64,000 bases of DNA. Source: Zunongwangia mangrovi. GTDB lineage: Bacteria; Bacteroidota; Bacteroidia; Flavobacteriales; Flavobacteriaceae. This document shows, in pieces, positions 35,097 to 47,548 of the stretch (the first letter of the stretch is position 1; every line of letters begins with the position of its first letter). The notes below the pieces were generated by a model. The model was given only the letters and a program-made list of their open reading frames with translations, was not told where the DNA came from and ran no database searches. Made by a program: the position numbers and the translations under genes. Location of the stretch: positions 1 to 64,000 of the forward strand of contig NZ_FOKV01000004.1 of NCBI RefSeq assembly GCF_900112105.1. Reading direction: 5' to 3'.

Positions 35097-35387
35097 ATGA
35101 GTGCTATACAAATTCTTGAAAAATTAGAGCGTATCGAACGAATGATACGCGCCAACAAACCGGTATTGTCCTTTGAAGAGGCTGCTGAATATACCGGACT
35201 TTCCAAAAGTTATCTCTACAAATTAACTGCACGTGGAGAAATTCCGTATTCCAAACCTAGAGGAAAAATGATCTATTTCTCCCGGGAAAAACTGGATGAA
35301 TGGTTACTACAGAATTCCTTTAAATCTTTGAGTGATCTGGAACAGGAAGCGATTTCATATACCGCGAAAAACAAAAAATTCCAATAA
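35097..35387 (+). CDS. Excisionase-family HTH protein (MerR-like)
   Basis: A 96-residue winged HTH protein: LSFEEAAEYTGLSKSYLYKL (residues about 24-43), then IPYSKPRGKMIYFSREKLDEWL. This is the helix_turn_helix_17 pattern common at the start of Bacteroidota element replication modules. It is the first gene of the HTH-VapE-primase-Mob run, immediately before vapE (3-base gap). Likely regulates the module or assists excision. Confidence 0.82.
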   Translation: MSAIQILEKLERIERMIRANKPVLSFEEAAEYTGLSKSYLYKLTARGEIPYSKPRGKMIYFSREKLDEWLLQNSFKSLSDLEQEAISYTAKNKKFQ

Positions 35388-35390
35388 GTC

Positions 35391-36575
35391 ATGGAATCGT
35401 CGAACAGAAAATTATATCTGGCCGAAGAACAAAAGAAGAAAACCATTTATGATTACCTGGAAGATTATCTCATTGAAAAATATGATATCCGTTTTAATGA
35501 GATTGCCCAGGAATTCCAAATTCGACTGAAAGGCCAGGGCAAATGGGAAGAGTTTGAAATGAACTCCCTACTCATTGAACTTGCCAGGTCGAATATTGAA
35601 GTGACTCTTACCAAATTAGAAATCTTCTTAAAATCTTATATGATACCTAGATATAATCCTATACAAAGTTATTTTGAAGAGCTGCCAAAATGGAATGGTA
35701 ATGATCATATTAGTGATCTTGCAAGTTACCTGCCTCTTCGTGAACCTAAAGCCTTTCTTTACCATTTTAGAAAATGGCTCGTAAGAAGTGTAAAGTGCGC
35801 CATGGAAGATGCATATTTCAATAAGCAGTGCCTGGTACTTGTCCATGCTGCACAAAATTCCGGGAAATCTACCTGGTGCCGCTTTCTTTGTCCTCCGAAA
35901 TTATCAAATTACATTGCGGAAGATCTGAGCAATGACAAAGATGCCCGGATTCAACTAACACGAAACTTTCTGATCAACCTCGATGAATTGTCGGTATTGG
36001 CTAGGAAAGAAACCAATGCATTGAAGGCTTATTTTTCAAAGACGATTATCAATGAGCGCCTTCCCTATGATCGCAAGAATACCAGCCTGCATCGTTGCTG
36101 TTCTTTTATTGGTTCGACCAACCGTACCACCTTTTTAAATGATGAAACGGGTTCGGTACGCTGGCTATGCTTTGAACTCCTGGGAAAAATCGATTTTAAT
36201 TATAGCCGTAAAATTGATATTAACCAGGTATGGGCTCAGGCCTTTATGCTCGCCTATATGGATATTGACTTTAGTCCCGAATTGACGCCGAAAGATATTG
36301 CTGAGAATGAACAGCGCAATAACAGCTACCGACAGGCGACGATGGAAGAGGAACTGTTGAATAAATTCTATACGCCCAGCCAAAAGGAAGAAGACTTTTA
36401 TACGACAACCGACATCCTCTCAAAATTACAGCATGTAAATAACAGACTGAATGTCGTAAACATGGGTAGGGCGTTAGCTGCACAGGGATATGAGCGGGTT
36501 AAAGATAAAAAGAGAAGAATCTATGGCTACCTGGCTAAACCTTCATTTAAATACTCCCCGCTAGAGAATATCTAG
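35391..36575 (+). CDS. VapE/VirE-family ATPase (primase-helicase partner)
   Basis: A 394-residue protein with a DUF-type N-terminus and a P-loop ATPase core: Walker A AAQNSGKSTWCRF near 155-165 and Walker B-like FLINLDELSVLARKE near 188-200. The order HTH, VapE, Toprim primase and Mob is typical of flavobacterial mobilizable elements. VapE-type proteins are thought to be superfamily 3-like helicases for element replication. It starts four bases past the HTH stop. Confidence 0.82.
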   Translation: MESSNRKLYLAEEQKKKTIYDYLEDYLIEKYDIRFNEIAQEFQIRLKGQGKWEEFEMNSLLIELARSNIEVTLTKLEIFLKSYMIPRYNPIQSYFEELPKWNGNDHISDLASYLPLREPKAFLYHFRKWLVRSVKCAMEDAYFNKQCLVLVHAAQNSGKSTWCRFLCPPKLSNYIAEDLSNDKDARIQLTRNFLINLDELSVLARKETNALKAYFSKTIINERLPYDRKNTSLHRCCSFIGSTNRTTFLNDETGSVRWLCFELLGKIDFNYSRKIDINQVWAQAFMLAYMDIDFSPELTPKDIAENEQRNNSYRQATMEEELLNKFYTPSQKEEDFYTTTDILSKLQHVNNRLNVVNMGRALAAQGYERVKDKKRRIYGYLAKPSFKYSPLENI

Positions 36576-36590
36576 AAAACTTAATTAAAA

Positions 36591-36780
36591 AAACTTACCC
36601 ATCTTACCCCATTTAGGTTTAACGCAGTATTCATAAAGCTTGAGCTTGTGGTAAGATTTGCTGCCAATCATCTTACCCAACTTACCCAAACAAGACCTTG
36701 GGTAAGATGGGTAAGATCGAAAATCAAGGTATTACTCACCCTACCCTTAGTATTTACGGGGCTTGGGTAAGATGGTAACT
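36591..36780. repeat. CTTACCC / GGGTAAG iterons, possible replication origin
   Basis: CTTACCC-type 7-mers occur at 36594, 36604, 36672 and 36681 and in reverse (GGGTAAG) at 36700, 36709 and 36765, plus a GGTAAGAT at 36650. Bases 36672-36689 and 36699-36716 form an 18-bp inverted repeat with one mismatch. The region lies between vapE and the primase gene and contains no gene, so it is a good oriV or autoregulatory site candidate. Confidence 0.65.
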
Positions 36781-36793
36781 TAAATTCAGAAAA

Positions 36794-37657
36794 ATGAAAA
36801 AAAATAATGAATTGTGGAGTAGCGCCCGAAATACAGATATTATTCAATTATTGAAGTCTTTAGGGCACTACCCCACCAAAACAAAGGAAAAAGAAGCTTG
36901 GTTTCTGAGTCCCCTGCGGTCAGAAACGCAAGCCTCTTTTATCGTATCTAAAACAAAAAACCTTTGGTACGACTTCGGTCTTAGTAAAGGTGGGAATAGT
37001 ATCGACCTTATCATGAATTTGAAATCCTGCAATTTCCAGGAGGCGTTGAACTTTCTAAAAAATCCACAGTTTAGCTTTTCTTTTAACCCGCCTGCTCAAA
37101 TTTCACATGAACCAAAAATTAAATTACTGAAAACATCACATTTTATCTCAAACGCCTTACAGGATTATATCATGCAACGTGGAATTCCCATACGATTAGC
37201 TTCACGCTTTCTGGAGGAAGTGACCTATAAGGTTCGCAGTGGAATCTATTTTAGTCTGGGACTTAAAAATCATAAAAATGGTTGGGAACTTCGAAATGCT
37301 TATTTCAAAACGGTGATCCCTCCGAAATCCTATACCCACATTTGCTGGAATCATACTAGTCTTTGTATCACCGAAGGTATGTTTGATTTTTTGTCTCTGG
37401 GAGTTTTAGAGAAAGAGTCTTTTGAAAAAATGGACCATGTGATACTAAATTCTCTGGCTTGTGTTCCGCAACTAATGGGATTGCTTCCCTCCTATTCCAA
37501 GATATATCTCTACCTGGATAATGACCCTGCGGGAGATCGTATGACTTCGTATTTACTAGAACATTTTGCTCAGGCCATCGACCTGAGATATCGCTTTTAT
37601 CCACATAAAGATCTTAACGAAAAACTTTGCCATGTTCGACGAGAAAATACCCTTTGA
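36794..37657 (+). CDS. CHC2-like/Toprim DNA primase
   Basis: A 287-residue primase-like protein. The N-terminus has a degenerate CHC2 zinc-finger region (SPLRSETQASF, WYDFGLSKGGNSIDL) without the canonical cysteine set. The C-terminal Toprim domain has CITEGMFDFLSLG (Toprim Glu) near 195 and YLYLDNDPAGDRM (DxDxxG) near 240. With VapE it should prime element replication. The downstream MobC frame overlaps its end by 26 bp. Confidence 0.85.
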   Translation: MKKNNELWSSARNTDIIQLLKSLGHYPTKTKEKEAWFLSPLRSETQASFIVSKTKNLWYDFGLSKGGNSIDLIMNLKSCNFQEALNFLKNPQFSFSFNPPAQISHEPKIKLLKTSHFISNALQDYIMQRGIPIRLASRFLEEVTYKVRSGIYFSLGLKNHKNGWELRNAYFKTVIPPKSYTHICWNHTSLCITEGMFDFLSLGVLEKESFEKMDHVILNSLACVPQLMGLLPSYSKIYLYLDNDPAGDRMTSYLLEHFAQAIDLRYRFYPHKDLNEKLCHVRRENTL

Positions 37658-38153
37658 AAATGAAAAAAAATCCTCCTATTCCTTAAGCTTTGAAAAGCTA
37701 AAAAAAAGGGAAGGCAAAACGAGGATTTCCAATGATGGGGACACGGGTTCCCATCAAACGGAAAATTCTAATATAGATCCTAATTCAAGATGTGTGTCTG
37801 TGGACACAATCTTGATTGCTCCCCATGGTCGCAATGAAAAAAAAGAGATGTTTAAGGGGAAGACCTCCTTAATCAAATTCAGGTGTACGCTGTACCAGAA
37901 AAAACTACTGAACATCAAGGCGAAACGATCGGGATTAAGTCTGAGTGAATTTTGTCGAAAATCTGCGATGGATCTGCCCATCAATGAGCGGATGAGCGAT
38001 GATCATATTGCCATCTACAAAGATCTGGTGAAATTTCATAACAACTTTAAGTCCATCGGGAATATTTTCCGAAAACGGGATCCCAGGTTATCTACTGAAG
38101 TTTATAAGCTGGCCGAGGCGATGAAGCAACATCTTAAAAAACTGGATCTATGA
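37632..38153 (+). CDS. Plasmid mobilization relaxosome protein MobC-like
   Basis: A 173-residue protein whose conserved part is the C-terminal 100 residues: IKFRCTLYQKKLLNIKAKRSGLSLSEFCRKSAM, then a helical EVYKLAEAMKQHLKKL end. This is the MobC/bMobC (ribbon-helix-helix-like) class that melts oriT for the relaxase. The first 70 residues look unstructured; a start at residue 72 (MFKGKTS) is possible. It overlaps the relaxase ORF by 4 bp (ATGA). Confidence 0.78.
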   Translation: MFDEKIPFENEKKSSYSLSFEKLKKREGKTRISNDGDTGSHQTENSNIDPNSRCVSVDTILIAPHGRNEKKEMFKGKTSLIKFRCTLYQKKLLNIKAKRSGLSLSEFCRKSAMDLPINERMSDDHIAIYKDLVKFHNNFKSIGNIFRKRDPRLSTEVYKLAEAMKQHLKKLDL

Positions 38154-39019
38154 TTGGTAAAGGAAAATCCATTAGTCATACCCAAGCTTCCATGAAGTAT
38201 GGATGGAACCAGGAGAAGGAGGCAGAGATTGTCTACTCTCAAAATATCGTGGGAGATTCTCCGCAGGAAATTAGCCGGGAGTTTGAACAGATCCAAAAGC
38301 TGAATGAGCATTGTGAGCGAAATACGCTTTCATTCGTCCTGAGTCCTACCATTGAAGATGGCCGAACACTGGATCAGCGAAAACTTGGAGAACTGACCAA
38401 AGACTTTATGCGGGAAATGAAACTGGGCGAGCGACAGGCGATTGCCTTTGTACATCAGGATAAAGAGCATAAGCATGTACATCTTTATGTGAACCGAATT
38501 GATTTTGATGGTCGTGCCTATAAGGATAATTTTATTGGTAAACGTAGTCAGCATGCTGCCGAGCGGGTAGCTCACGAACATCAACTGACCACCGTTCGTG
38601 AGGTACAGCTCATACGGGAGATTAATCTTACCGATATCCGTTTGGAAATCAAACGTCGGCATGAGCTGACCATGAAACAATTTAAACCGGAAACTTATAA
38701 AGAATACATGCGCGGAATGGAAACCAATGGTGTAAAAGCCATTCCCTTTATCAATAAGCAACAAAAATTGCAGGGCTTTCGATTTGAATTTGATGGACAT
38801 AGCCTTAAAGGCAGCTCGGTTCATCGCTCCATGAGTATGTCCAATATCGGAAAGCAAATGGCCAGAGAACATGGTATCGAGAAATTTAAAGAACTCAACA
38901 AAGCGATTAACCTTGCGAAAAGCCCGGAACCGGTGCAAATCAGCTTGAAACTATTAAAAGAAATCACACAAAAAGTTATTAAAAAGTCCATATCCAAAGG
39001 CATGGATATCGGATATTAA
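38150..39019 (+). CDS. Relaxase/mobilization nuclease (MobB-type)
   Basis: A 289-residue MOBP-like relaxase. The metal-binding HUH motif HKHVHLYVNRID near residue 107-118 follows a QAIAFVHQDKEH strand. An N-terminal catalytic residue must nick oriT; the early Tyr/His are in SMKYGWNQEKE and ENIV-like segments, and I cannot assign it with certainty. It begins in ATGA overlap with MobC. Presence of relaxase without tra genes makes the island mobilizable, not self-transmissible. Confidence 0.87.
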   Translation: MIGKGKSISHTQASMKYGWNQEKEAEIVYSQNIVGDSPQEISREFEQIQKLNEHCERNTLSFVLSPTIEDGRTLDQRKLGELTKDFMREMKLGERQAIAFVHQDKEHKHVHLYVNRIDFDGRAYKDNFIGKRSQHAAERVAHEHQLTTVREVQLIREINLTDIRLEIKRRHELTMKQFKPETYKEYMRGMETNGVKAIPFINKQQKLQGFRFEFDGHSLKGSSVHRSMSMSNIGKQMAREHGIEKFKELNKAINLAKSPEPVQISLKLLKEITQKVIKKSISKGMDIGY

Positions 39020-39031
39020 ACCTCTGTAATT

Positions 39032-39334
39032 ATGGCAAAAATTGATGAACTATCGGAATTGTTATGCGCTGAACTGGCAAGCTTCGAGCAGCATATGAAA
39101 CGACTGGAAGAAATTCACTCGCAGGGGATTCACCTGGATACCGAAGACCTGATACGACGACTTTCAAGCCTGGAAGACACACTGGATTTTGAAAAGAACG
39201 AATATGAACGGATTTCTACGGAATTATCCAACACGATTAAAGAGGCAAAGATCTACCCGAAATGGGCGCTTATTGTGTTTTTTGTGTCTTTGAGTTTGAA
39301 TATTATTGGTATAGCCTTTTTGGTATTTAGCTAA
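39032..39334 (+). CDS. Coiled-coil protein with C-terminal membrane anchor (mob operon)
   Basis: A 100-residue protein with a long helical, coiled-coil-like N-terminal region (about 1-72) and a single C-terminal transmembrane helix (ALIVFFVSLSLNIIGIAFLV, about 80-98). Third gene of the Mob run, 12 bp after the relaxase. Small tail-anchored proteins like this accompany relaxases in Bacteroidota; function unknown. Confidence 0.72.
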   Translation: MAKIDELSELLCAELASFEQHMKRLEEIHSQGIHLDTEDLIRRLSSLEDTLDFEKNEYERISTELSNTIKEAKIYPKWALIVFFVSLSLNIIGIAFLVFS

Positions 39335-39472
39335 GTATCTTATTTAATAATGGATACTAAAAATCCATACAGCTTTAGGACTAAATATAGGCAAGTTGGC
39401 TATAAATCACTGACAATGAATAATTAGTTATCTTTATAGCAGCACCCCTCCGTTAATAATACTTTATTAGGT

Positions 39473-40231
39473 ATGGAACTCGCATTCCTTCTTATTATTT
39501 TCATGGTCTTTTTCGTAGGCTCTGACTTTGTCATGAATGTGGTAATTCCTAGAATGAAAGGGAATTTTGGGGAACGCAGAGTTGCCACCAAACTACGAAA
39601 GCTTCGTAAAAGAGATTATATTGTCTTAAACAATATCCTTATACCATCTGGCCAGGGCAGTTCCCAAATTGACCATATCGTAATTTGTTCTTCGGGTGTT
39701 TTTGTAATCGAAACGAAACATTATAAAGGTTGGATTCATGGACATCAAAAATCTGAAAATTGGAGCCAGACCATTTTCAAGCATCATACAAGGTTTAAAA
39801 ATCCAATTCGACAAAATTGGACTCATATATTTGCTTTAAGAAAGCTTCATCCGAACTTCCAGAAACTAAAATACTATCCTATTGTAGTTTTTTCAGGACG
39901 TGCACGGTTAAAGAATGTGACTTCAGAACTGCCTGTATTGTATCTGTGGCAACTCGTACGATACATTAGAACAGAAAATCACCGGAACCGATTATCACCA
40001 AACCAAATGCTATGGATCGCAGAAACCATTAAATCTAAAAATTTAAAAAGAAGAAAGGATCGAAAAAACCATAACCGCTACGTTAAATGGCGGACTAAAG
40101 ACCAAAAAATCATGGTGCATTTAAAGATCTGTCCGAGGTGTCAAGGCGATTTATTACTAAAAAATGGTCGTTATGGTAATTTCTACGGATGTTCTAATTA
40201 TCCAAAGTGTACTTATACCAAAAATTATTAG
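39473..40231 (+). CDS. NERD nuclease-related protein with topoisomerase-type zinc finger
   Basis: A 252-residue protein: a membrane anchor at about 1-23, a NERD domain with SQIDHIVI and VIETKHYKGWIHG (the D and ExK nuclease-like signature) and a C-terminal C4 finger CPRCQGDLLL..CSNYPKCTY resembling those of topoisomerase IA. NERD domains are nuclease-like and often lie in defence or mobile contexts. Role is inferred, not known. The first gene of the right-hand cargo. Confidence 0.82.
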   Translation: MELAFLLIIFMVFFVGSDFVMNVVIPRMKGNFGERRVATKLRKLRKRDYIVLNNILIPSGQGSSQIDHIVICSSGVFVIETKHYKGWIHGHQKSENWSQTIFKHHTRFKNPIRQNWTHIFALRKLHPNFQKLKYYPIVVFSGRARLKNVTSELPVLYLWQLVRYIRTENHRNRLSPNQMLWIAETIKSKNLKRRKDRKNHNRYVKWRTKDQKIMVHLKICPRCQGDLLLKNGRYGNFYGCSNYPKCTYTKNY

Positions 40232-40463
40232 TGATAGATTCAGAATAAGCTTTTCATCATTAATTTGCGAATAATACCAACAGAGAGTTGTAAATTTTAA
40301 TAGTGATTGGATCATCTCTAGGATTTGAAACTTCTATGAGATAAAGCTATCCCCCCTATTTTGTCCGTACCTTAAAAGGTATTGATTTGCAAAACATATA
40401 AAGTTTATTTTCTCCAGTCTCATCATTGGAGATTTGTTTTTTGGGTTAGCTGCGATTCCCTGT

Positions 40464-40536
40464 ATATGCACTGAATGCACTTAGTGAGTGTCTTCATTTC
40501 ACCTCACCTTACGGGTGTACAGACACCCTCAAAAAT
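40464..40536 (-). ncRNA. Predicted single guide RNA for the dCas12f-like protein
   Basis: Minus-strand RNA just after the dcas12f stop. The stem GGGTGTCTGTACACCC (40513-40528) is a hairpin. Then GTGAGGTGAAATGAAG...CTCAC closes a second stem (GTGAG with CTCAC at about 40484-40488), which mirrors the Cas12f repeat end GAATGAAG..(N)TGCAAC. The next 20 nt, TAAGTGCATTCAGTGCATAT (40464-40483), would be the guide. There is no second repeat, so no array. The 5' end is unknown and may extend into the TCAA repeat or the gene's 3' end. The base before the guide is C, not G. Confidence 0.62.
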
Positions 40537-40560
40537 TCAATCAATCAATCAATCAATCAA
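40537..40560. repeat. (TCAA)6 microsatellite at the 3' end of the dcas12f-like gene
   Basis: Six exact TCAA copies straddle the stop codon (40553-40555) of the Cas12f-like gene and precede the predicted guide-RNA scaffold. Its phase is such that copy-number change would not alter the coding sequence, but it would change the distance between gene and RNA. Confidence 0.8.
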
Positions 40561-41650
40561 TAATAATCTCAATACCCGCCATCTCGGCTTTGTATTTTAT
40601 TTTTTCTATCAATCCATAATAACTCCAATTTCGGAGCACAAATTCTTCTTCTTTAGCAACCGCCATTTTCTTTTCCTGATTTATAAGCACAAGTGTTCCC
40701 GCTTGTTGTTTGATACAAAAATTAATTAATTGCCTACTGTATACGTGCAGACGGTTATCGATATAATTTCTTTCTCGCTCCCGAAATCTATCAACTGCCT
40801 TCGTTTTTCGTTTGTATCCTTTTCCTGATTTTGCGTAACTAATTCCTTGTTGTGTTCTTTTTCGGGCAGCCTGGATTGCTAATCTTCTATAGAGAAATTC
40901 TTCCTTACTGCCTATTTGTAGTTTTGACATAGCTGTTTTTACTGTTACAGGAAATTCTATAGATAAAGCAGCTTCTGCAATTCTTTCAGGCTTCAAAAGG
41001 TTTTCTGTCTTTTCGATCTCGAACACCCCCAGCATAAATATCTTACCTTTTTTCAACTGAATTTGCGAAGTACAAAGTTTAGTTTTGCCATTCATTACTT
41101 TTTTTAAAAGACTACGTTTATCGCTAAAATCTCGTCCTAAATATGTGACCATAGGAATTGAGAAAAGCCGAAAACTAAATATATTTTTTTCTTCATTATA
41201 CGATAAACCTCGCATACCTTCATAACTAAAAGGAAATGGCATATTACGTTTAAAATTCATTAGTGAACGCTCACCGCTCCAATATTCCGATTGATATCTG
41301 GTATATTCCTTTATTGTAGATTGATTAATGCTACTCAAGATATTAGTAGGGATTTCTCCTTTAAACCGATCTGATATCAAACGATAAGTGGTATTCATTC
41401 TAGAACGGTTTAATATTCCCAATTCATCCTTTTGTTCATCAACTAATTTGTATTTAACCTCTTCAGAGAGGTATAGAAATTCTTTTATCATTCCTTGTAC
41501 AAACAAATGGGAAGCTATAAGATTTGCAGCCCGGTAACACCGATTTTGCCATCTATATAAAGTTTTAAAAGCTTCACTACGTTCCTCCTTCGATGGCAGA
41601 TCGATGAGCAATTGAATTTTTCGCGTAAGTGTCATTGTTGATGTATTCAT
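40553..41650 (-). CDS. Nuclease-dead Cas12f/TnpB-like RNA-guided protein (dCas12f)
   Basis: A 365-residue protein. Its C-terminal third carries a TnpB/Cas12 pattern: RKRTQQG (about 268), KAVDRFRERERNYIDNRLH (about 285-303), a GTLVLINQE strand (about 317) and NWSYYGLIEKIKYKAEMAG (about 342-360). The RuvC-I Asp position reads SIEFPV (about 229), the RuvC-II Glu position is LVLINQ with no Glu, and the protein stops at IEIIID, before the zinc finger and RuvC-III Asp. So it should bind RNA and DNA without cutting. ATG start two bases after the sigma gene's stop: an operon. Family call is by pattern, not by search. Confidence 0.82.
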   Translation of the reverse strand: MNTSTMTLTRKIQLLIDLPSKEERSEAFKTLYRWQNRCYRAANLIASHLFVQGMIKEFLYLSEEVKYKLVDEQKDELGILNRSRMNTTYRLISDRFKGEIPTNILSSINQSTIKEYTRYQSEYWSGERSLMNFKRNMPFPFSYEGMRGLSYNEEKNIFSFRLFSIPMVTYLGRDFSDKRSLLKKVMNGKTKLCTSQIQLKKGKIFMLGVFEIEKTENLLKPERIAEAALSIEFPVTVKTAMSKLQIGSKEEFLYRRLAIQAARKRTQQGISYAKSGKGYKRKTKAVDRFRERERNYIDNRLHVYSRQLINFCIKQQAGTLVLINQEKKMAVAKEEEFVLRNWSYYGLIEKIKYKAEMAGIEIIID

Positions 41651-41652
41651 AG

Positions 41653-42438
41653 CTAAGCAGATTGTAAATGTTCTTTACTTTTCTGATTCATCGCTTTGTA
41701 AGCAATCATAAACTGACGATGCACCTCTTTATGTGAGCGCTGAAGCTTTTCAGCAATTTTTTGAAAAGAAAGGTGCATTTCACATCGTAATTGGAATATT
41801 TCAGCCTGTTCTTTAGTTAATTCCAATTTTAAATTTTCAAAGTTTGAATGCGTGTGGTCTACCTGCTCTAATGTATGTCCACTTTGAACAATCATTTTAA
41901 TACGCTCTATGGCCAAATGAACCTGATTACTTGTCTCTCTAACGCTTACCCCCATAAGTTTGGAAATGATCGCGTATTTGAAGTTGTTTTTTAAACAAAG
42001 TTCAATCAATTGTCTTTGCTTACTTTCTAAAAACGGAAGTACACATAGTATCTGATCAAGGCATTCCTGTTTAACATTCTGATCCAACAGATGCACATCT
42101 TCAGCCTCAGGATTGAATCCATGCATATACTCCTGATAGTTATCGAAAAGTTCTAAACGACTGATAGATCTCTGAAACTTATTTCTAGGCCTGCAATAAT
42201 AGTAGATACATTCTGTCTTCATTACATAAAACAGAAAAGAATGAATATGTTGAGGGTCATTTATCTTATCTCTTTTCTGCCATAGTTTTAAGAAGGTATC
42301 CTGAAGAATGTTTTCAATAATAAAATCATCTTTTATTACCTTTTTCCCTACCCAAAAAAGTTTATTATGATACTTGGTATAGATAAACTCAATAGCATCG
42401 GGGTGTCCTTGTTTTAATAATTTAAAATTACGTTCCAT
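41653..42438 (-). CDS. ECF-like sigma factor paired with the dCas12f-like protein
   Basis: From the ATG at 42438 (MERNFKLLKQG; the TTG at 42444 is a weaker start) the protein has a region 2 like FecI sigmas (AIEFIYTKYHNKLFWVGKK, NILQDTFLKLWQKRDKIND, YYCRPRNKFQRS), then region 4 (LESKQRQLIELCLKNNFKY, KLMGVSVRETSNQVHLAIER). A second HTH follows (LTKEQAEIFQLRC, QKIAEKLQRSHKEVHRQ), an unusual duplicate region 4. No FecR or SusCD is adjacent. The dcas12f gene begins two bases after its stop. Confidence 0.85.
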   Translation of the reverse strand: MERNFKLLKQGHPDAIEFIYTKYHNKLFWVGKKVIKDDFIIENILQDTFLKLWQKRDKINDPQHIHSFLFYVMKTECIYYYCRPRNKFQRSISRLELFDNYQEYMHGFNPEAEDVHLLDQNVKQECLDQILCVLPFLESKQRQLIELCLKNNFKYAIISKLMGVSVRETSNQVHLAIERIKMIVQSGHTLEQVDHTHSNFENLKLELTKEQAEIFQLRCEMHLSFQKIAEKLQRSHKEVHRQFMIAYKAMNQKSKEHLQSA

Positions 42439-42869
42439 TGGCAACAGTTTATGATGTTGGATCGGATCTTAGAATAAGTACTGTACTAATAAATAATATA
42501 AGACTTTCGGTATGGTCTATAGCTTTCATAATTTTGCTATGGTTTTTTGATTGTCTCTATTTAGTTCATCAAGCCATAAGCCTTCCCCAACAGCTGTCAA
42601 ACTCGAGGGAAGGCTTTCTAGCTTCTAGCCTAGCCTAAATGGCTAATTCATTAAACTGTGGTTTGTTACTTTATTGTAGGGTTGGTATTATTAATGATTT
42701 AATCAACCCTCTTCCTCTGAAAAATAATATTGCTATAGCATTTCCTAATGCAATAGATTCCATTTAAATGCTTATATAAGTACTTTGTGATAACCAAATA
42801 TAGTAAAAATAATTAGCATTCGTTCGGTCGAACGAGATTAATTTATAAGTATGCGATTCCTTTGCTAAT
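42439..42869. promoter_or_regulatory. Divergent intergenic region between the sigma and the XRE-like gene
   Basis: No gene seen. It contains a hairpin AAGCCTTCCC..GGGAAGGCTT (42578-42616) and a perfect inverted repeat TCGTTCG-GT-CGAACGA (42820-42835), 35 bases before the XRE-like ATG and a likely operator. The remaining bases hold the sigma promoter, but no consensus box is clear. Confidence 0.45.
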
Positions 42870-43981: not shown

Positions 43982-45223
43982 TTAACTATTTTTAATCCAA
44001 TTATCTATTTCTTGGGCAATATCAAATTGCCATTTTTTTATATTTCGATTGACCTGAATTGAAATCACTCCACATTCTTTATTACTCAGTTTTTCTCCAT
44101 ATTTTTCGTAGTAAAAACCGGAGCTTAAAAATGAAGAATTTCCAGGATAAATTAAGGCAACTTTTTGCGCTGAATAATAATCGTGGTAAACGTATAGTTG
44201 TCTGAGATCATTAGGTACAGGATTAGATTTGGAAATATTCTTCCATTTCGTATCACAAACTATGCAATCCTGCATACCTTTATTAATTACTATATCTGGA
44301 CGCATATTTGAATTATAACCGTCATTTGGCTTCCAGAATTTCTTAGTATTCTGCGCATGGATAGTATACTTTTCCGGAAGATGCCTTTTTAAACTGATAT
44401 AAATAAATTCTTCCCAAAGCGAATTCATATCAAATAATAAGGCAATCATATTTTCTTGGCCGTGCTTTATATTAGGCGCATACTGGAGAATTATAAATCG
44501 GGCTATTTCTAAAGCTGTTTTATAAGGCGCCGATTTTCTATTTAGCTTGATGCGAGTAAAACTTCTGCTGTCAATATTGATTTTACTAACTTCAGGAAAA
44601 TTAAGCTGAATAGACTTACATCTTGAATAAACATAAGTTCCTTTAGAAAACTTCTCTATTACCGAAAGAGCGTAGGCTAAAACCTGATGAATAAGATGAT
44701 CTTTTTCATACACCTGATGCGTAGTATAAAATCTTTCTTTATGAACTAAGTTTTTACGTAAATGACCGGCAAATTCAAGCTTTCCTTTTAAAGCTTTTAC
44801 ATTTCCTGTCTTTCGATAATATTGCTTAATTAGCCCTTGATGAATTAAAACTTCCACTTCATCTAAAAACCATTGAAAATAAATATCTAAAAGATGTAAA
44901 TTCTGTTTAGAGACATTTGCTTTTCCTACCTTACTTATATTTAGCTTCTTGGTTGTCTTAAGCATATCAATTAACACCCCCTGCCATAATGCTGTATTAT
45001 CTTCTTGGGTATCAACTTTTGGTAAAATTTCTATAGTTAAATTTTCTACCTGAAGAACTCCTACAAAATTTTTAAACTTTACACCATTATATCTAAGATC
45101 GAAATAACAATCATTGTTTAATGCGTTCAGTTTAGATAGTGCTGCTAAATGCTTTCTTTTAAAAACATCTCCACATTGCAATAATTGATATTCAAAAACC
45201 TGTATGTGATTCTTAGCAATCAT
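43982..45223 (-). CDS. mcrC: McrC-like component of a McrBC restriction system
   Basis: A 413-residue protein with an N-terminal DNA/partner domain and a C-terminal PD-(D/E)XK-type nuclease: NMRPDIVINKGMQDCIVCDTKWKN (about 305-328; Asp, Asp and Lys at the usual spacing). McrC supplies the endonuclease to the McrB motor. It starts one base after the McrB stop. The partner McrB below has the GTPase NRGNV hallmark, so the pair should be active. Confidence 0.88.
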   Translation of the reverse strand: MIAKNHIQVFEYQLLQCGDVFKRKHLAALSKLNALNNDCYFDLRYNGVKFKNFVGVLQVENLTIEILPKVDTQEDNTALWQGVLIDMLKTTKKLNISKVGKANVSKQNLHLLDIYFQWFLDEVEVLIHQGLIKQYYRKTGNVKALKGKLEFAGHLRKNLVHKERFYTTHQVYEKDHLIHQVLAYALSVIEKFSKGTYVYSRCKSIQLNFPEVSKINIDSRSFTRIKLNRKSAPYKTALEIARFIILQYAPNIKHGQENMIALLFDMNSLWEEFIYISLKRHLPEKYTIHAQNTKKFWKPNDGYNSNMRPDIVINKGMQDCIVCDTKWKNISKSNPVPNDLRQLYVYHDYYSAQKVALIYPGNSSFLSSGFYYEKYGEKLSNKECGVISIQVNRNIKKWQFDIAQEIDNWIKNS

Positions 45224-47548
45224 CTATTTATTTAAGAGTGCTTTTATCGCTTCACTTATATCTTCAATAGATTTTAATTCATAACTAACTGTCTCCTCTG
45301 GTACGTCTATAGCATCAAATTCTGCAAATTTGACTTTAGCTTCATTTCGCTTCACAAAGCCCTCACCTAAAATTAATGCAATTTTTTCGTAGTCATTATA
45401 AAAGTATTCTTGAAGTAAAGGGATTATTTTATTTTCAAATACTTCTTTAAGATCTTCTAAAGAGGTGATCTTTAAAAAATAAGAGTGCCCAATGGTATGA
45501 TCTCTATCTAATAAAACCTCAATACGATCATTTATAGTCTTTAAAACTTCAGATAGATTAATGTCAGAAAAATCTAATTCAGCAAGTAAGTCTGGATTTG
45601 GCATGACTTCTTCAAACGCAAAACGCCTTCTTAACGCCGTGTCTAAAGCTTCTACACTACGATCTGCGGTATTCATTGTACCTATAATGTAAACGTTTGA
45701 AGGTACTGTAAACTTTTCTTTTGAATATGGTAAGTCTAATATAATCTCTTCTTCCTTTCCTAAACGTTTATCGGATTCCAGTAAGGTTATTAACTCGCCA
45801 AAAATAGCACTAACGTTACCTCGATTTATTTCATCAATAATAATTACATAATTCTGAAGATTAGGAGATTCCATCCTTTTATGAGATTCTATCTCCGATG
45901 TATTATTCTTATAAGACTTTAACCTTTTTAAAATACCAGGATAATAAATTCCAAGTCCAGTAGAACGTATCTCTCTTTTCCCATAGTAAGCATCTCTTAA
46001 TGTTGAAATACTTAAGGTGTGTCCTGTACCTCCACTTGACTTTTTAAACTGAATTGAAGTTTCCGTAAAACCGATGATTTTATATTCTTTTCCTTCTGTT
46101 CTCAGCGAGAATTCTATATCCTCATTCTCTTCCCATTCTTCTTGTAATCTTTGAAACGCATCATCAAAATTAAGCTCTGAATTATTGCCTTTTATATGTT
46201 CTAACCAATTGGTTTTAGCTTTATCACAAATTCTTCTAAATATCCCCGGTAAGTAATCATAAATTACACGTTTATCTTCGGTAGTTTTAGGTTTGATTCC
46301 TTCTACAAAATCTTCATAGCTATATGACTGATGAAAGGTTGTAAAAACAATTTGACCATTTTCAAATAACCGATCGTATTCTACTACCAAAGATTTTCGC
46401 TGTTCTAAATTATCAGAATCAGATAATTTAAAATTAGGATTAGTAATTTGTACGGCTAACTCTTTTGTTTTATAAGTTTTTCCCGTTCCAGGTGGGCCGT
46501 ATAAGATGGTATTTAAATTTTTCTGAAGCTTTTTTTCTCTGTCAGGATTTAGATTGTAATCAGAAATAATCTTTTTTCCCATAATCTTTTTTCGATAGTC
46601 TAAATCGAAAACCGCTTTTTCAAAATAATCATTATTGCTGTCATAACTAGATTTAACAGAACCAACATATTCTTTTCTAGTAGCCTCCAAAATATCATTC
46701 TGATTGGAAATCACTTTTTCAAAATCTAATAACTTATTGAAAAATGGTTGTGGAGGATTCCCTTTATAGTTTTTACTGTTATCTGAAATTTTTTGTACTG
46801 AAATTGCTGCATATCTACAATCATGACTATTGTATAAATTCCAACAATAACGCTGCCCGACTATAAAATTTAGGCGGTTTTCAGCAATACTATAATTAAT
46901 CTTTAAGTCATTTGGCTTTAGATCTAAGTGATCTACTATTTTATCAAGAAATGAAAAGAAATATATTTTTTCTTCATCTTTAAATTGATTCAAAACTTTT
47001 AAAAAATTAATTTCATTTTTATCCATTTTATTCTCTAATTTTAAAGCAATATAATTTTCTAGTGTAGGCAGAAAATCACGATACAATGCCTTTAGCTGAA
47101 GTTTTAACGCATCCTTGGTTTTATAATAATCTTGAGCTTTAAAACTATAATTGAATTTCTTTTTAGGTACTATTTTCTTATTCTGTAATTTAGATTTATC
47201 AACTTTTCCCCCTACAGACCAGTTAATTAAAGAGTATTCTGAAAAATCTTTCACAAAACTTTGAGCTAACTTAGAGAATCTCTGTTTTTCAATAAAATTT
47301 CCTTCTGGATGGATTTCAAAACAGATATCATTAGCATAGCGACAAAGCTCAAAATGAAGTTCTAAAAGTTGTATTTCGGAGTCTTTTGGAATTATACTTA
47401 TTAATCTATAAGACTCCGTATTTTTGTCTAACCAATTATGATTAATCAATGGGTGATTTTCATCAATCAAATCACTTTTGATATCTTGAAACAAAATGGA
47501 AAGAAACTCTTTATTACTAGAAAAATCATTTATAGTTTTATCTGGCAT
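45224..47548 (-). CDS. mcrB: McrB-like AAA+ GTPase of a McrBC restriction system
   Basis: A 774-residue protein: an N-terminal region (about 1-330, no known DNA-binding motif recognised) followed by an AAA+ domain with Walker A LYGPPGTGKTYKTKELA (about 349), Walker B ENYVIIIDEINRGNVSAIFGE (NRGNV, the GTP-binding signature; about 565) and the arginine finger-type TADRSVEALDTALRRRF. This class cleaves DNA carrying modified cytosine with McrC. The N-terminal domain decides target recognition and is not a match I can name. Confidence 0.9.
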   Translation of the reverse strand: MPDKTINDFSSNKEFLSILFQDIKSDLIDENHPLINHNWLDKNTESYRLISIIPKDSEIQLLELHFELCRYANDICFEIHPEGNFIEKQRFSKLAQSFVKDFSEYSLINWSVGGKVDKSKLQNKKIVPKKKFNYSFKAQDYYKTKDALKLQLKALYRDFLPTLENYIALKLENKMDKNEINFLKVLNQFKDEEKIYFFSFLDKIVDHLDLKPNDLKINYSIAENRLNFIVGQRYCWNLYNSHDCRYAAISVQKISDNSKNYKGNPPQPFFNKLLDFEKVISNQNDILEATRKEYVGSVKSSYDSNNDYFEKAVFDLDYRKKIMGKKIISDYNLNPDREKKLQKNLNTILYGPPGTGKTYKTKELAVQITNPNFKLSDSDNLEQRKSLVVEYDRLFENGQIVFTTFHQSYSYEDFVEGIKPKTTEDKRVIYDYLPGIFRRICDKAKTNWLEHIKGNNSELNFDDAFQRLQEEWEENEDIEFSLRTEGKEYKIIGFTETSIQFKKSSGGTGHTLSISTLRDAYYGKREIRSTGLGIYYPGILKRLKSYKNNTSEIESHKRMESPNLQNYVIIIDEINRGNVSAIFGELITLLESDKRLGKEEEIILDLPYSKEKFTVPSNVYIIGTMNTADRSVEALDTALRRRFAFEEVMPNPDLLAELDFSDINLSEVLKTINDRIEVLLDRDHTIGHSYFLKITSLEDLKEVFENKIIPLLQEYFYNDYEKIALILGEGFVKRNEAKVKFAEFDAIDVPEETVSYELKSIEDISEAIKALLNK

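What the first reader, a model, noticed from the sequence alone, without database searches (positions are those of the whole stretch)
40464..40536. Cas12f-style guide RNA scaffold with one 20-nt guide and no array
On the minus strand the hairpin GGGTGTCTGTACACCC is followed by GTGAGGTGAAATGAAG and a closing CTCAC. The end mirrors Cas12f repeats, which finish AATGAAG + stem-closing bases. The 20 bases after CTCAC (40464-40483) read TAAGTGCATTCAGTGCATAT. No second copy of the repeat follows, so it would be a natural single guide. The base immediately before the guide is C, whereas a target motif with G is expected, so the locus would not target itself.
Basis: partly seen in the sequence, partly recalled or inferred. 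Interest (0 to 1): 0.9.

Follow-up and report, generated by a model that had tools for sequence, protein, structure and literature searches.

The report
Guide RNA of RNA-guided sigma factor
The window carries a small guide RNA next to a dead Cas12f and a sigma factor, a kind of natural RNA-guided gene switch already known from related bacteria; its real guide is not the stretch first proposed but the next 16 bases, and these point to a nutrient-import (susC) gene elsewhere in the same genome.

Summary
The RNA is real, but the proposed guide is wrong. It lies directly downstream of a nuclease-dead Cas12f (40553-41650, minus) and an ECF sigma factor (41653-42444). Both match solved chains named "Nuclease-deactivated Cas12f" and "RpoE". 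This is the dCas12f-sigma kind of RNA-guided transcription system, known to me from recall and those PDB entries. Across 31 homologous RNA units, the "20-nt guide" TAAGTGCATTCAGTGCATAT is a conserved third hairpin followed by a pseudoknot strand. The true guide is the next ~16 nt, GAATCGCAGCTAACCC (40443-40458). It matches 14 of 16 bases, with a G before it, a site about 250 nt upstream of a susC-susD operon in the same genome; a sister genome has the same site before its susC. In relatives the usual guide, GCGTGGGCTCTCTTAT, equals the 5' arm of a conserved terminator-like hairpin in the leaders of both susC operons and the sigma-dCas12f operon itself. This suggests self-activation and transcription starting past a terminator. 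Nothing was tested at the bench.

The parts
40459..40530 (-). guide-RNA scaffold (three hairpins plus pseudoknot), ends ...GCATATACAGG
   Evidence: CM R1 hit C17:40459-40530, E=9.9e-17 (this unit is in the model); alignment A3 of 31 units; pair counts
40513..40528 (-). hairpin 1 GGGTG-TCTGTA-CACCC; its loop CTGTA (40518-40522) is the pseudoknot partner
   Evidence: 98.1% of cells paired
40484..40507 (-). hairpin 2 GTGAG...CTCAC with variable loop
   Evidence: 98.7% of cells paired, hardly any variation
   Evidence: 98.4% of cells paired, 3 of 4 pairs with changes on both sides
40460..40464 (-). TACAG, pseudoknot strand pairing with CTGTA at 40518-40522
   Evidence: helix 2, 98.7% paired, pair 9-76 UA:27 CG:4
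40443..40458 (-). true guide GAATCGCAGCTAACCC (first base certain to +/-1)
   Evidence: position fixed by relatives whose guide starts after TACAAC; target match
40553..41650 (-). nuclease-dead, C-terminally truncated Cas12f, 365 aa
   Evidence: PDB 9n9c_A E=1.7e-156; RuvC-I Asp position is Ala228, no RuvC-III or zinc ribbon
41653..42444 (-). ECF sigma factor, start TTG 42444 (or ATG 42438)
   Evidence: Sigma70_r2 and r4; PDB 9n9q_C RpoE E=2.5e-70
42578..42616 (-). A hairpin AAAGCCTTCCC...GGGAAGGC in the leader of the sigma-dCas12f operon, also found before susC in G000, G003, G004
42795..42802 (-). TATATTTG, possible promoter box of the operon (motif recalled, not tested)
   Evidence: sequence only

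Best explanation
It is the natural single guide RNA of a dCas12f-ECF sigma RNA-guided transcription system. The RNA folds into three hairpins, and its TACAG strand pairs back with the loop of hairpin 1 (shown by covariation). The ~16 nt after it, GAATCGCAGCTAACCC, are the guide. dCas12f with this RNA would bind the leader of a susC-susD-M16 peptidase operon (G000:C6) at a G-preceded 14/16 match and hold the sigma factor there, so that RNA polymerase starts downstream of the site and past a conserved terminator-like hairpin in that leader (inferred). In most relatives the guide instead matches the 5' arm of that hairpin, which also sits in the leader of the sigma-dCas12f operon, so the same guide should drive susC and its own operon together (inferred).
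For: Protein identity: dCas12f and RpoE match chains of solved dCas12f entries; the two genes lie side by side. RNA scaffold: 31 units, 19 pairs, 98.5% of cells paired, 10 cells with changes on both sides against 1.4 in shuffles. Guide variable, scaffold constant. Window target: 14/16 with G before it, 0 of 200 shuffled guides as good in that leader; it is ~220 nt downstream of the start of the only B element of the genome and ahead of SusC and SusD genes. Sister genome G004: guide differs by one base, 14/16 in its susC leader, 0 of 200. Other genomes: 9 of 11 genomes with both a unit and a trans leader gave at least one match with 0 of 200 shuffles as good (in six of the nine the leader also fitted the guide pattern by which I had sought it, so there the match is circular and only the gene behind it informs). 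Own sigma leader: 8 of 24 loci with 0 of 200 shuffles as good, 7 of these 8 with G before the site. Bases before the guide: of 37 matches with up to 2 mismatches, the 8 beside dCas12f all have C and the other 29 all have G.
Against: Genome-wide the window guide's match count is at chance level: 3 other places with up to 3 mismatches against 2 for the reversed pattern; only the location makes it telling. The 18-mer was chosen by me after the scaffold end had been inferred. The window guide does not match its own sigma leader (96 of 200 shuffles as good). Several other units have no match found: both units of the second copy in G000, all three G002 units, L036 and L041. A-type guides match susC A sites preceded by A, not G (G003). 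The G in the pattern favours G hits, and in B sites that G is also paired in the hairpin. No expression data.
Confidence: 0.8

Rival explanations
1. One reading: guide = 40464-40483 (TAAGTGCATTCAGTGCATAT).
For: Position after a stem-closing CTCAC looks like a repeat end (reader); no array.
Against: That stretch is a conserved hairpin with compensatory changes; no second place in the genome with up to 3 mismatches.
Confidence: 0.03
2. The guide pairs with leader RNA, not DNA: the common guide equals the 5' arm of the B terminator, so it could invade the hairpin by pairing with the 3' arm and cause antitermination; or dCas12f bound in the leader could be a roadblock that represses.
For: The common guide is the 5' arm of a hairpin that ends in a T-run.
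Against: The window guide targets a stretch between the B hairpin and the A hairpin, not a terminator arm; the linked sigma factor and the G-before-target, C-before-guide contrast fit DNA recognition; the known relatives bind DNA (recalled).
Confidence: 0.12
3. A decayed or orphan unit: the guide diverged after capture on a mobile element and has no current target; the susC match is coincidence.
For: Two mismatches in 16; genome-wide count at chance level; most relatives carry another guide.
Against: Same site hit by the sister genome's version; the one hit lies in the genome's only B-type leader.
Confidence: 0.1

Closest known systems
dCas12f-sigmaE RNA-guided transcription (recalled: preprint 'Exapted CRISPR-Cas12f homologs drive RNA-guided transcription', 2025; not held in the library; PDB 9n9c, 9n9m, 9n9o, 9n9q seen as molecule names only)
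   Same: dead Cas12f of the same length, adjacent ECF sigma, single guide RNA without array, G before targets, susC-type targets (the last two recalled for the known system)
   Different: Here: guide and target assigned for this genome; tandem units in relatives; common guide equals a terminator arm shared by susC and the system's own operon. I cannot say whether these points are already in print.
TldR, TnpB-like nuclease-dead repressors (Wiegand et al. 2024, seen only as a citation and in passages of PMC13418256)
   Same: RuvC-dead, RNA-guided, regulates host genes
   Different: TldR represses and comes from TnpB; here the protein is Cas12f-like and linked to a sigma factor
CRISPR-Cas12f (type V-F) nucleases, e.g. 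PDB 9nzo, 8hr5, 7c7l
   Same: related by sequence, hairpin scaffold with guide at the 3' end (recalled for these)
   Different: no array, no catalytic residues, no C-terminal zinc/RuvC-III part

Membership tests
dCas12f-sigmaE RNA-guided transcription | nuclease-dead Cas12f homologue | tested here: met
   full-length match to 9n9c; Ala228 at the RuvC-I Asp position, no counterpart of the RuvC-II Glu stretch, protein ends before RuvC-III
dCas12f-sigmaE RNA-guided transcription | genetically linked ECF sigma factor | tested here: met
   start-to-stop neighbours; RpoE of 9n9q
dCas12f-sigmaE RNA-guided transcription | adjacent single guide RNA, scaffold conserved, guide variable | tested here: met
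dCas12f-sigmaE RNA-guided transcription | target with 5'-G motif upstream of a gene (motif recalled) | tested here: met
   for the window guide, sequence only; A-type guides of G003 have A instead
dCas12f-sigmaE RNA-guided transcription | guide RNA bound by dCas12f, sigma and RNA polymerase recruited, new start site | not testable with these tools
   needs RIP, ChIP and start-site mapping
CRISPR-Cas12f (type V-F) | CRISPR array | tested here: not met
   one unit in the window, three in the genome
CRISPR-Cas12f (type V-F) | active RuvC nuclease | tested here: not met
   alignment
TnpB/omegaRNA of IS605/IS607 | guide RNA overlapping a transposon right end, with TnpA or serine recombinase | not tested
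   transposon ends and transposases were not searched for

The most novel reading that the evidence does not exclude
A Flavobacteriaceae-wide regulon in which the guide equals the 5' arm of a conserved leader terminator. RNA-guided initiation just inside the hairpin yields transcripts that lack the 5' arm and so escape termination, switching on susC operons and, by the same guide, the sigma-dCas12f operon itself. This is RNA-guided terminator bypass with positive feedback; the Zunongwangia window is a branch whose guide moved to a site between the two leader hairpins.
Probability: 0.35. Interest if true: 0.78.

Novelty: new member of a known kind. Interest (0 to 1): 0.58.

Why it matters
It corrects where the guide of this RNA lies, and so what it targets, and links one concrete guide to one concrete susCD operon in the same genome. 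If the leader model holds, these bacteria use an RNA-programmed sigma factor to open nutrient-uptake operons by starting transcription past a built-in terminator, and keep the switch on by targeting its own operon. That can be tested with one guide deletion and start-site mapping.

Tried and rejected
Own-leader targeting for the window guide: not better than shuffles. Other places for the 18-mer: C15:178755 lies inside a sulfatase-like ORF (L023), C25:198331 lies about 570 nt upstream of an ORF on the same strand, inside an opposite-strand ORF (L024); neither is near the genome's only B element, so both were put aside. Rfam: nothing in the window at gathering scores and no family for the B or A leader (five loci). 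Single-strand folding of scaffold plus guide gave a different fold (z -1.98); it cannot show the pseudoknot and was not used. The 18 of 18 co-occurrence of B leader and dCas12f genomes is partly by construction: 11 of the 16 model sequences were leaders of sigma-dCas12f operons. Paper searches did not return the dCas12f-sigma paper itself; it is recalled. One search used 'flavobacteri' with whole-word matching and so was poorly posed. Rows dropped: from 34 distinct units listed, three were left out of A3 (L007_2, without a proper 5' part; L016_1 and L018_1, Sphingobacteriales units lying upstream of their operon). The regular expression missed units in L033, L038 and L039, though one search shows one beside L033. 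An earlier count said 13 of the B model sequences were sigma leaders; the right count is 11.

Full report
What is there. On the minus strand the window holds, in this order, an ECF sigma gene (41653-42444), a 365-aa Cas12f-like gene (40553-41650) and then the RNA in question. The Cas12f-like protein matches PDB chain 9n9c_A, 'Nuclease-deactivated Cas12f', over residues 1-364 at E=1.7e-156; the sigma factor matches 9n9q_C, 'RpoE', at E=2.5e-70. In the alignment with a Cas12f effector (9nzo) the Asp of the RuvC-I motif (motif recalled) falls on Ala228, the stretch with the RuvC-II Glu is missing, and the protein stops where RuvC-III and the zinc ribbon would follow. So it is a dead, truncated Cas12f paired with a sigma factor. 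I recall this as the RNA-guided transcription system made public by the Sternberg group in 2025; that paper is not in the library.

The RNA. Downstream of dCas12f genes in the own genome, in relatives and in 18 of 397 Flavobacteriaceae genomes, the same element recurs, usually 13-35 nt after the stop codon and in several loci in two or three tandem units. I aligned 31 distinct units of 34 listed (A3). Three hairpins and one pseudoknot account for 98.5% of 589 cells; five pairs have changes on both sides, 10 such cells against a shuffled mean of 1.4. The pseudoknot joins the loop of hairpin 1 (CTGTA or TTGTA) with the strand TACAG or TACAA just before the guide: UA in 27 units, CG in 4. The 20 bases named in the finding are hairpin 3 and the first base of that strand. 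Per column, the two arms are 83-100% identical over 24 loci while the next 16 bases are 42-71% identical. The guide therefore starts after TACAAC (TACAGG here) and reads GAATCGCAGCTAACCC, 40458 down to 40443.

The target of the window guide. In the own genome the 18-mer GGAATCGCAGCTAACCCA has, besides itself, three places with up to three mismatches, no more than chance (control 2). One of them, G000:C6:1874, is not an ordinary place. It lies in the leader of an operon that codes for a SusC-type TonB-dependent receptor, a SusD protein and an M16 peptidase, about 250 nt before the susC start, on the coding strand, with G before the match: 14 of 16 bases, 0 of 200 shuffled guides as good in that leader. 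The sister genome G004 (dCas12f 97% identical, guide one base different) has its own 14/16 match at the same place before its susC. The site is conserved in a third genome of the genus, G003, too (L131). The genus name Zunongwangia comes from the record title of L014, which is the G004 contig by length and match.

The leader. These susC leaders carry two further elements: a B element of about 105 nt, and an A hairpin (AAAGCCTTCCC...GGGAAGGC) not far before the start codon. The same two elements occur in the leaders of sigma-dCas12f operons, one or the other per locus. B folds, by consensus over 16 sequences, into a long hairpin GGGCGTGGGCTCnCTTAT...ATAAGTTGAGTTCCACGCC followed by a T-run, the shape of an intrinsic terminator; 7 of 28 pairs have changes on both sides. 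It has no match in Rfam (five loci searched). A model of B finds it in 65 of 397 family genomes, among them all 18 with dCas12f and 47 of the other 379; the first figure is partly built in, since 11 of the 16 model sequences came from leaders of sigma-dCas12f operons. Of the 30 B loci fetched, 18 precede a SusC-like protein, 7 a sigma-dCas12f operon, 3 another gene and 2 no ORF found in reach, by my reading of the N-termini (Pfam confirmed SusC-type domains in the three that I scanned, from G000, G152 and G281).

Common guide. In most relatives the guide is GCGTGGGCTCTCTTAT or close to it: the 5' arm of B. It matches the leader of its own sigma-dCas12f operon (8 of 24 loci with 0 of 200 shuffles as good; 16/16 in L031, 15/16 in L025, L030, L032, L040) and leaders elsewhere in the genome: of 13 such places fetched, 7 lie 305-652 nt before a SusC-like ORF. 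At up to two mismatches 37 places were listed in 17 genomes; the 8 beside dCas12f have C before the match and the other 29 have G. The pattern itself began with G, and in B that G is paired, so this contrast is suggestive rather than proof of a G motif. The G003 third unit has an A-type guide, matching the A hairpin of its susC leader over 15 bases, but with A before it.

How it probably works. Shown: scaffold structure, guide position by comparison, sequence matches and the gene behind them. Inferred: dCas12f-gRNA opens the leader DNA at the match and sigma recruits RNA polymerase, which starts downstream. With the recalled distance of about 46 bp from the G, the start in B sites falls at the beginning of the terminator's 3' arm (in L031 the T-run is 65 nt after the guide's first base, counted by eye), so the transcript would lack the 5' arm and escape termination. 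The window guide, placed after B, would do the same. Because B also heads the sigma-dCas12f operon in many relatives, the common guide would sustain its own system. In the window the guide does not match the own leader, so this feedback is not claimed here.

Self-targeting.

Verdict. Ordinary as to kind (a new member of a known system), corrected as to guide, and with a regulon structure that may be new; I could not check that against the primary paper.

Noticed in passing
40534-40557: Tandem TGAT repeat between the dCas12f stop and the guide RNA; the sister locus L003 has fewer copies, so its length varies.
   Followed up: no
L010 (G000:C25:499044-500138): A second sigma-dCas12f copy in the same genome with two guide-RNA units; their guides look like decayed B-type guides and have no clear match in the G000 susC leader.
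   Followed up: partly
35097-40231: Helix-turn-helix, VapE-like, primase-like, NikA-like and relaxase genes, then a NERD-domain protein convergent with the guide RNA: the system seems to sit on a mobilizable element.
   Followed up: no
G275, G024, G324 and others: 47 of 379 family genomes without a detected dCas12f still carry the B terminator leader, up to seven copies; something else may act on it or the system was lost.
   Followed up: no
L015, L016, L018: Sphingobacterium-type loci carry guide-RNA-like units over 2 kb before the dCas12f stop, upstream of the operon, instead of after it; L016 is filed as a Neobacillus MAG, probably mis-binned.
   Followed up: no
L081:9720-9757: Rfam DUF805b RNA downstream of the target susC operon.
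   Followed up: no
43982-47548: Two genes that look like McrC and McrB restriction proteins (by eye, not searched) near the operon.
   Followed up: no
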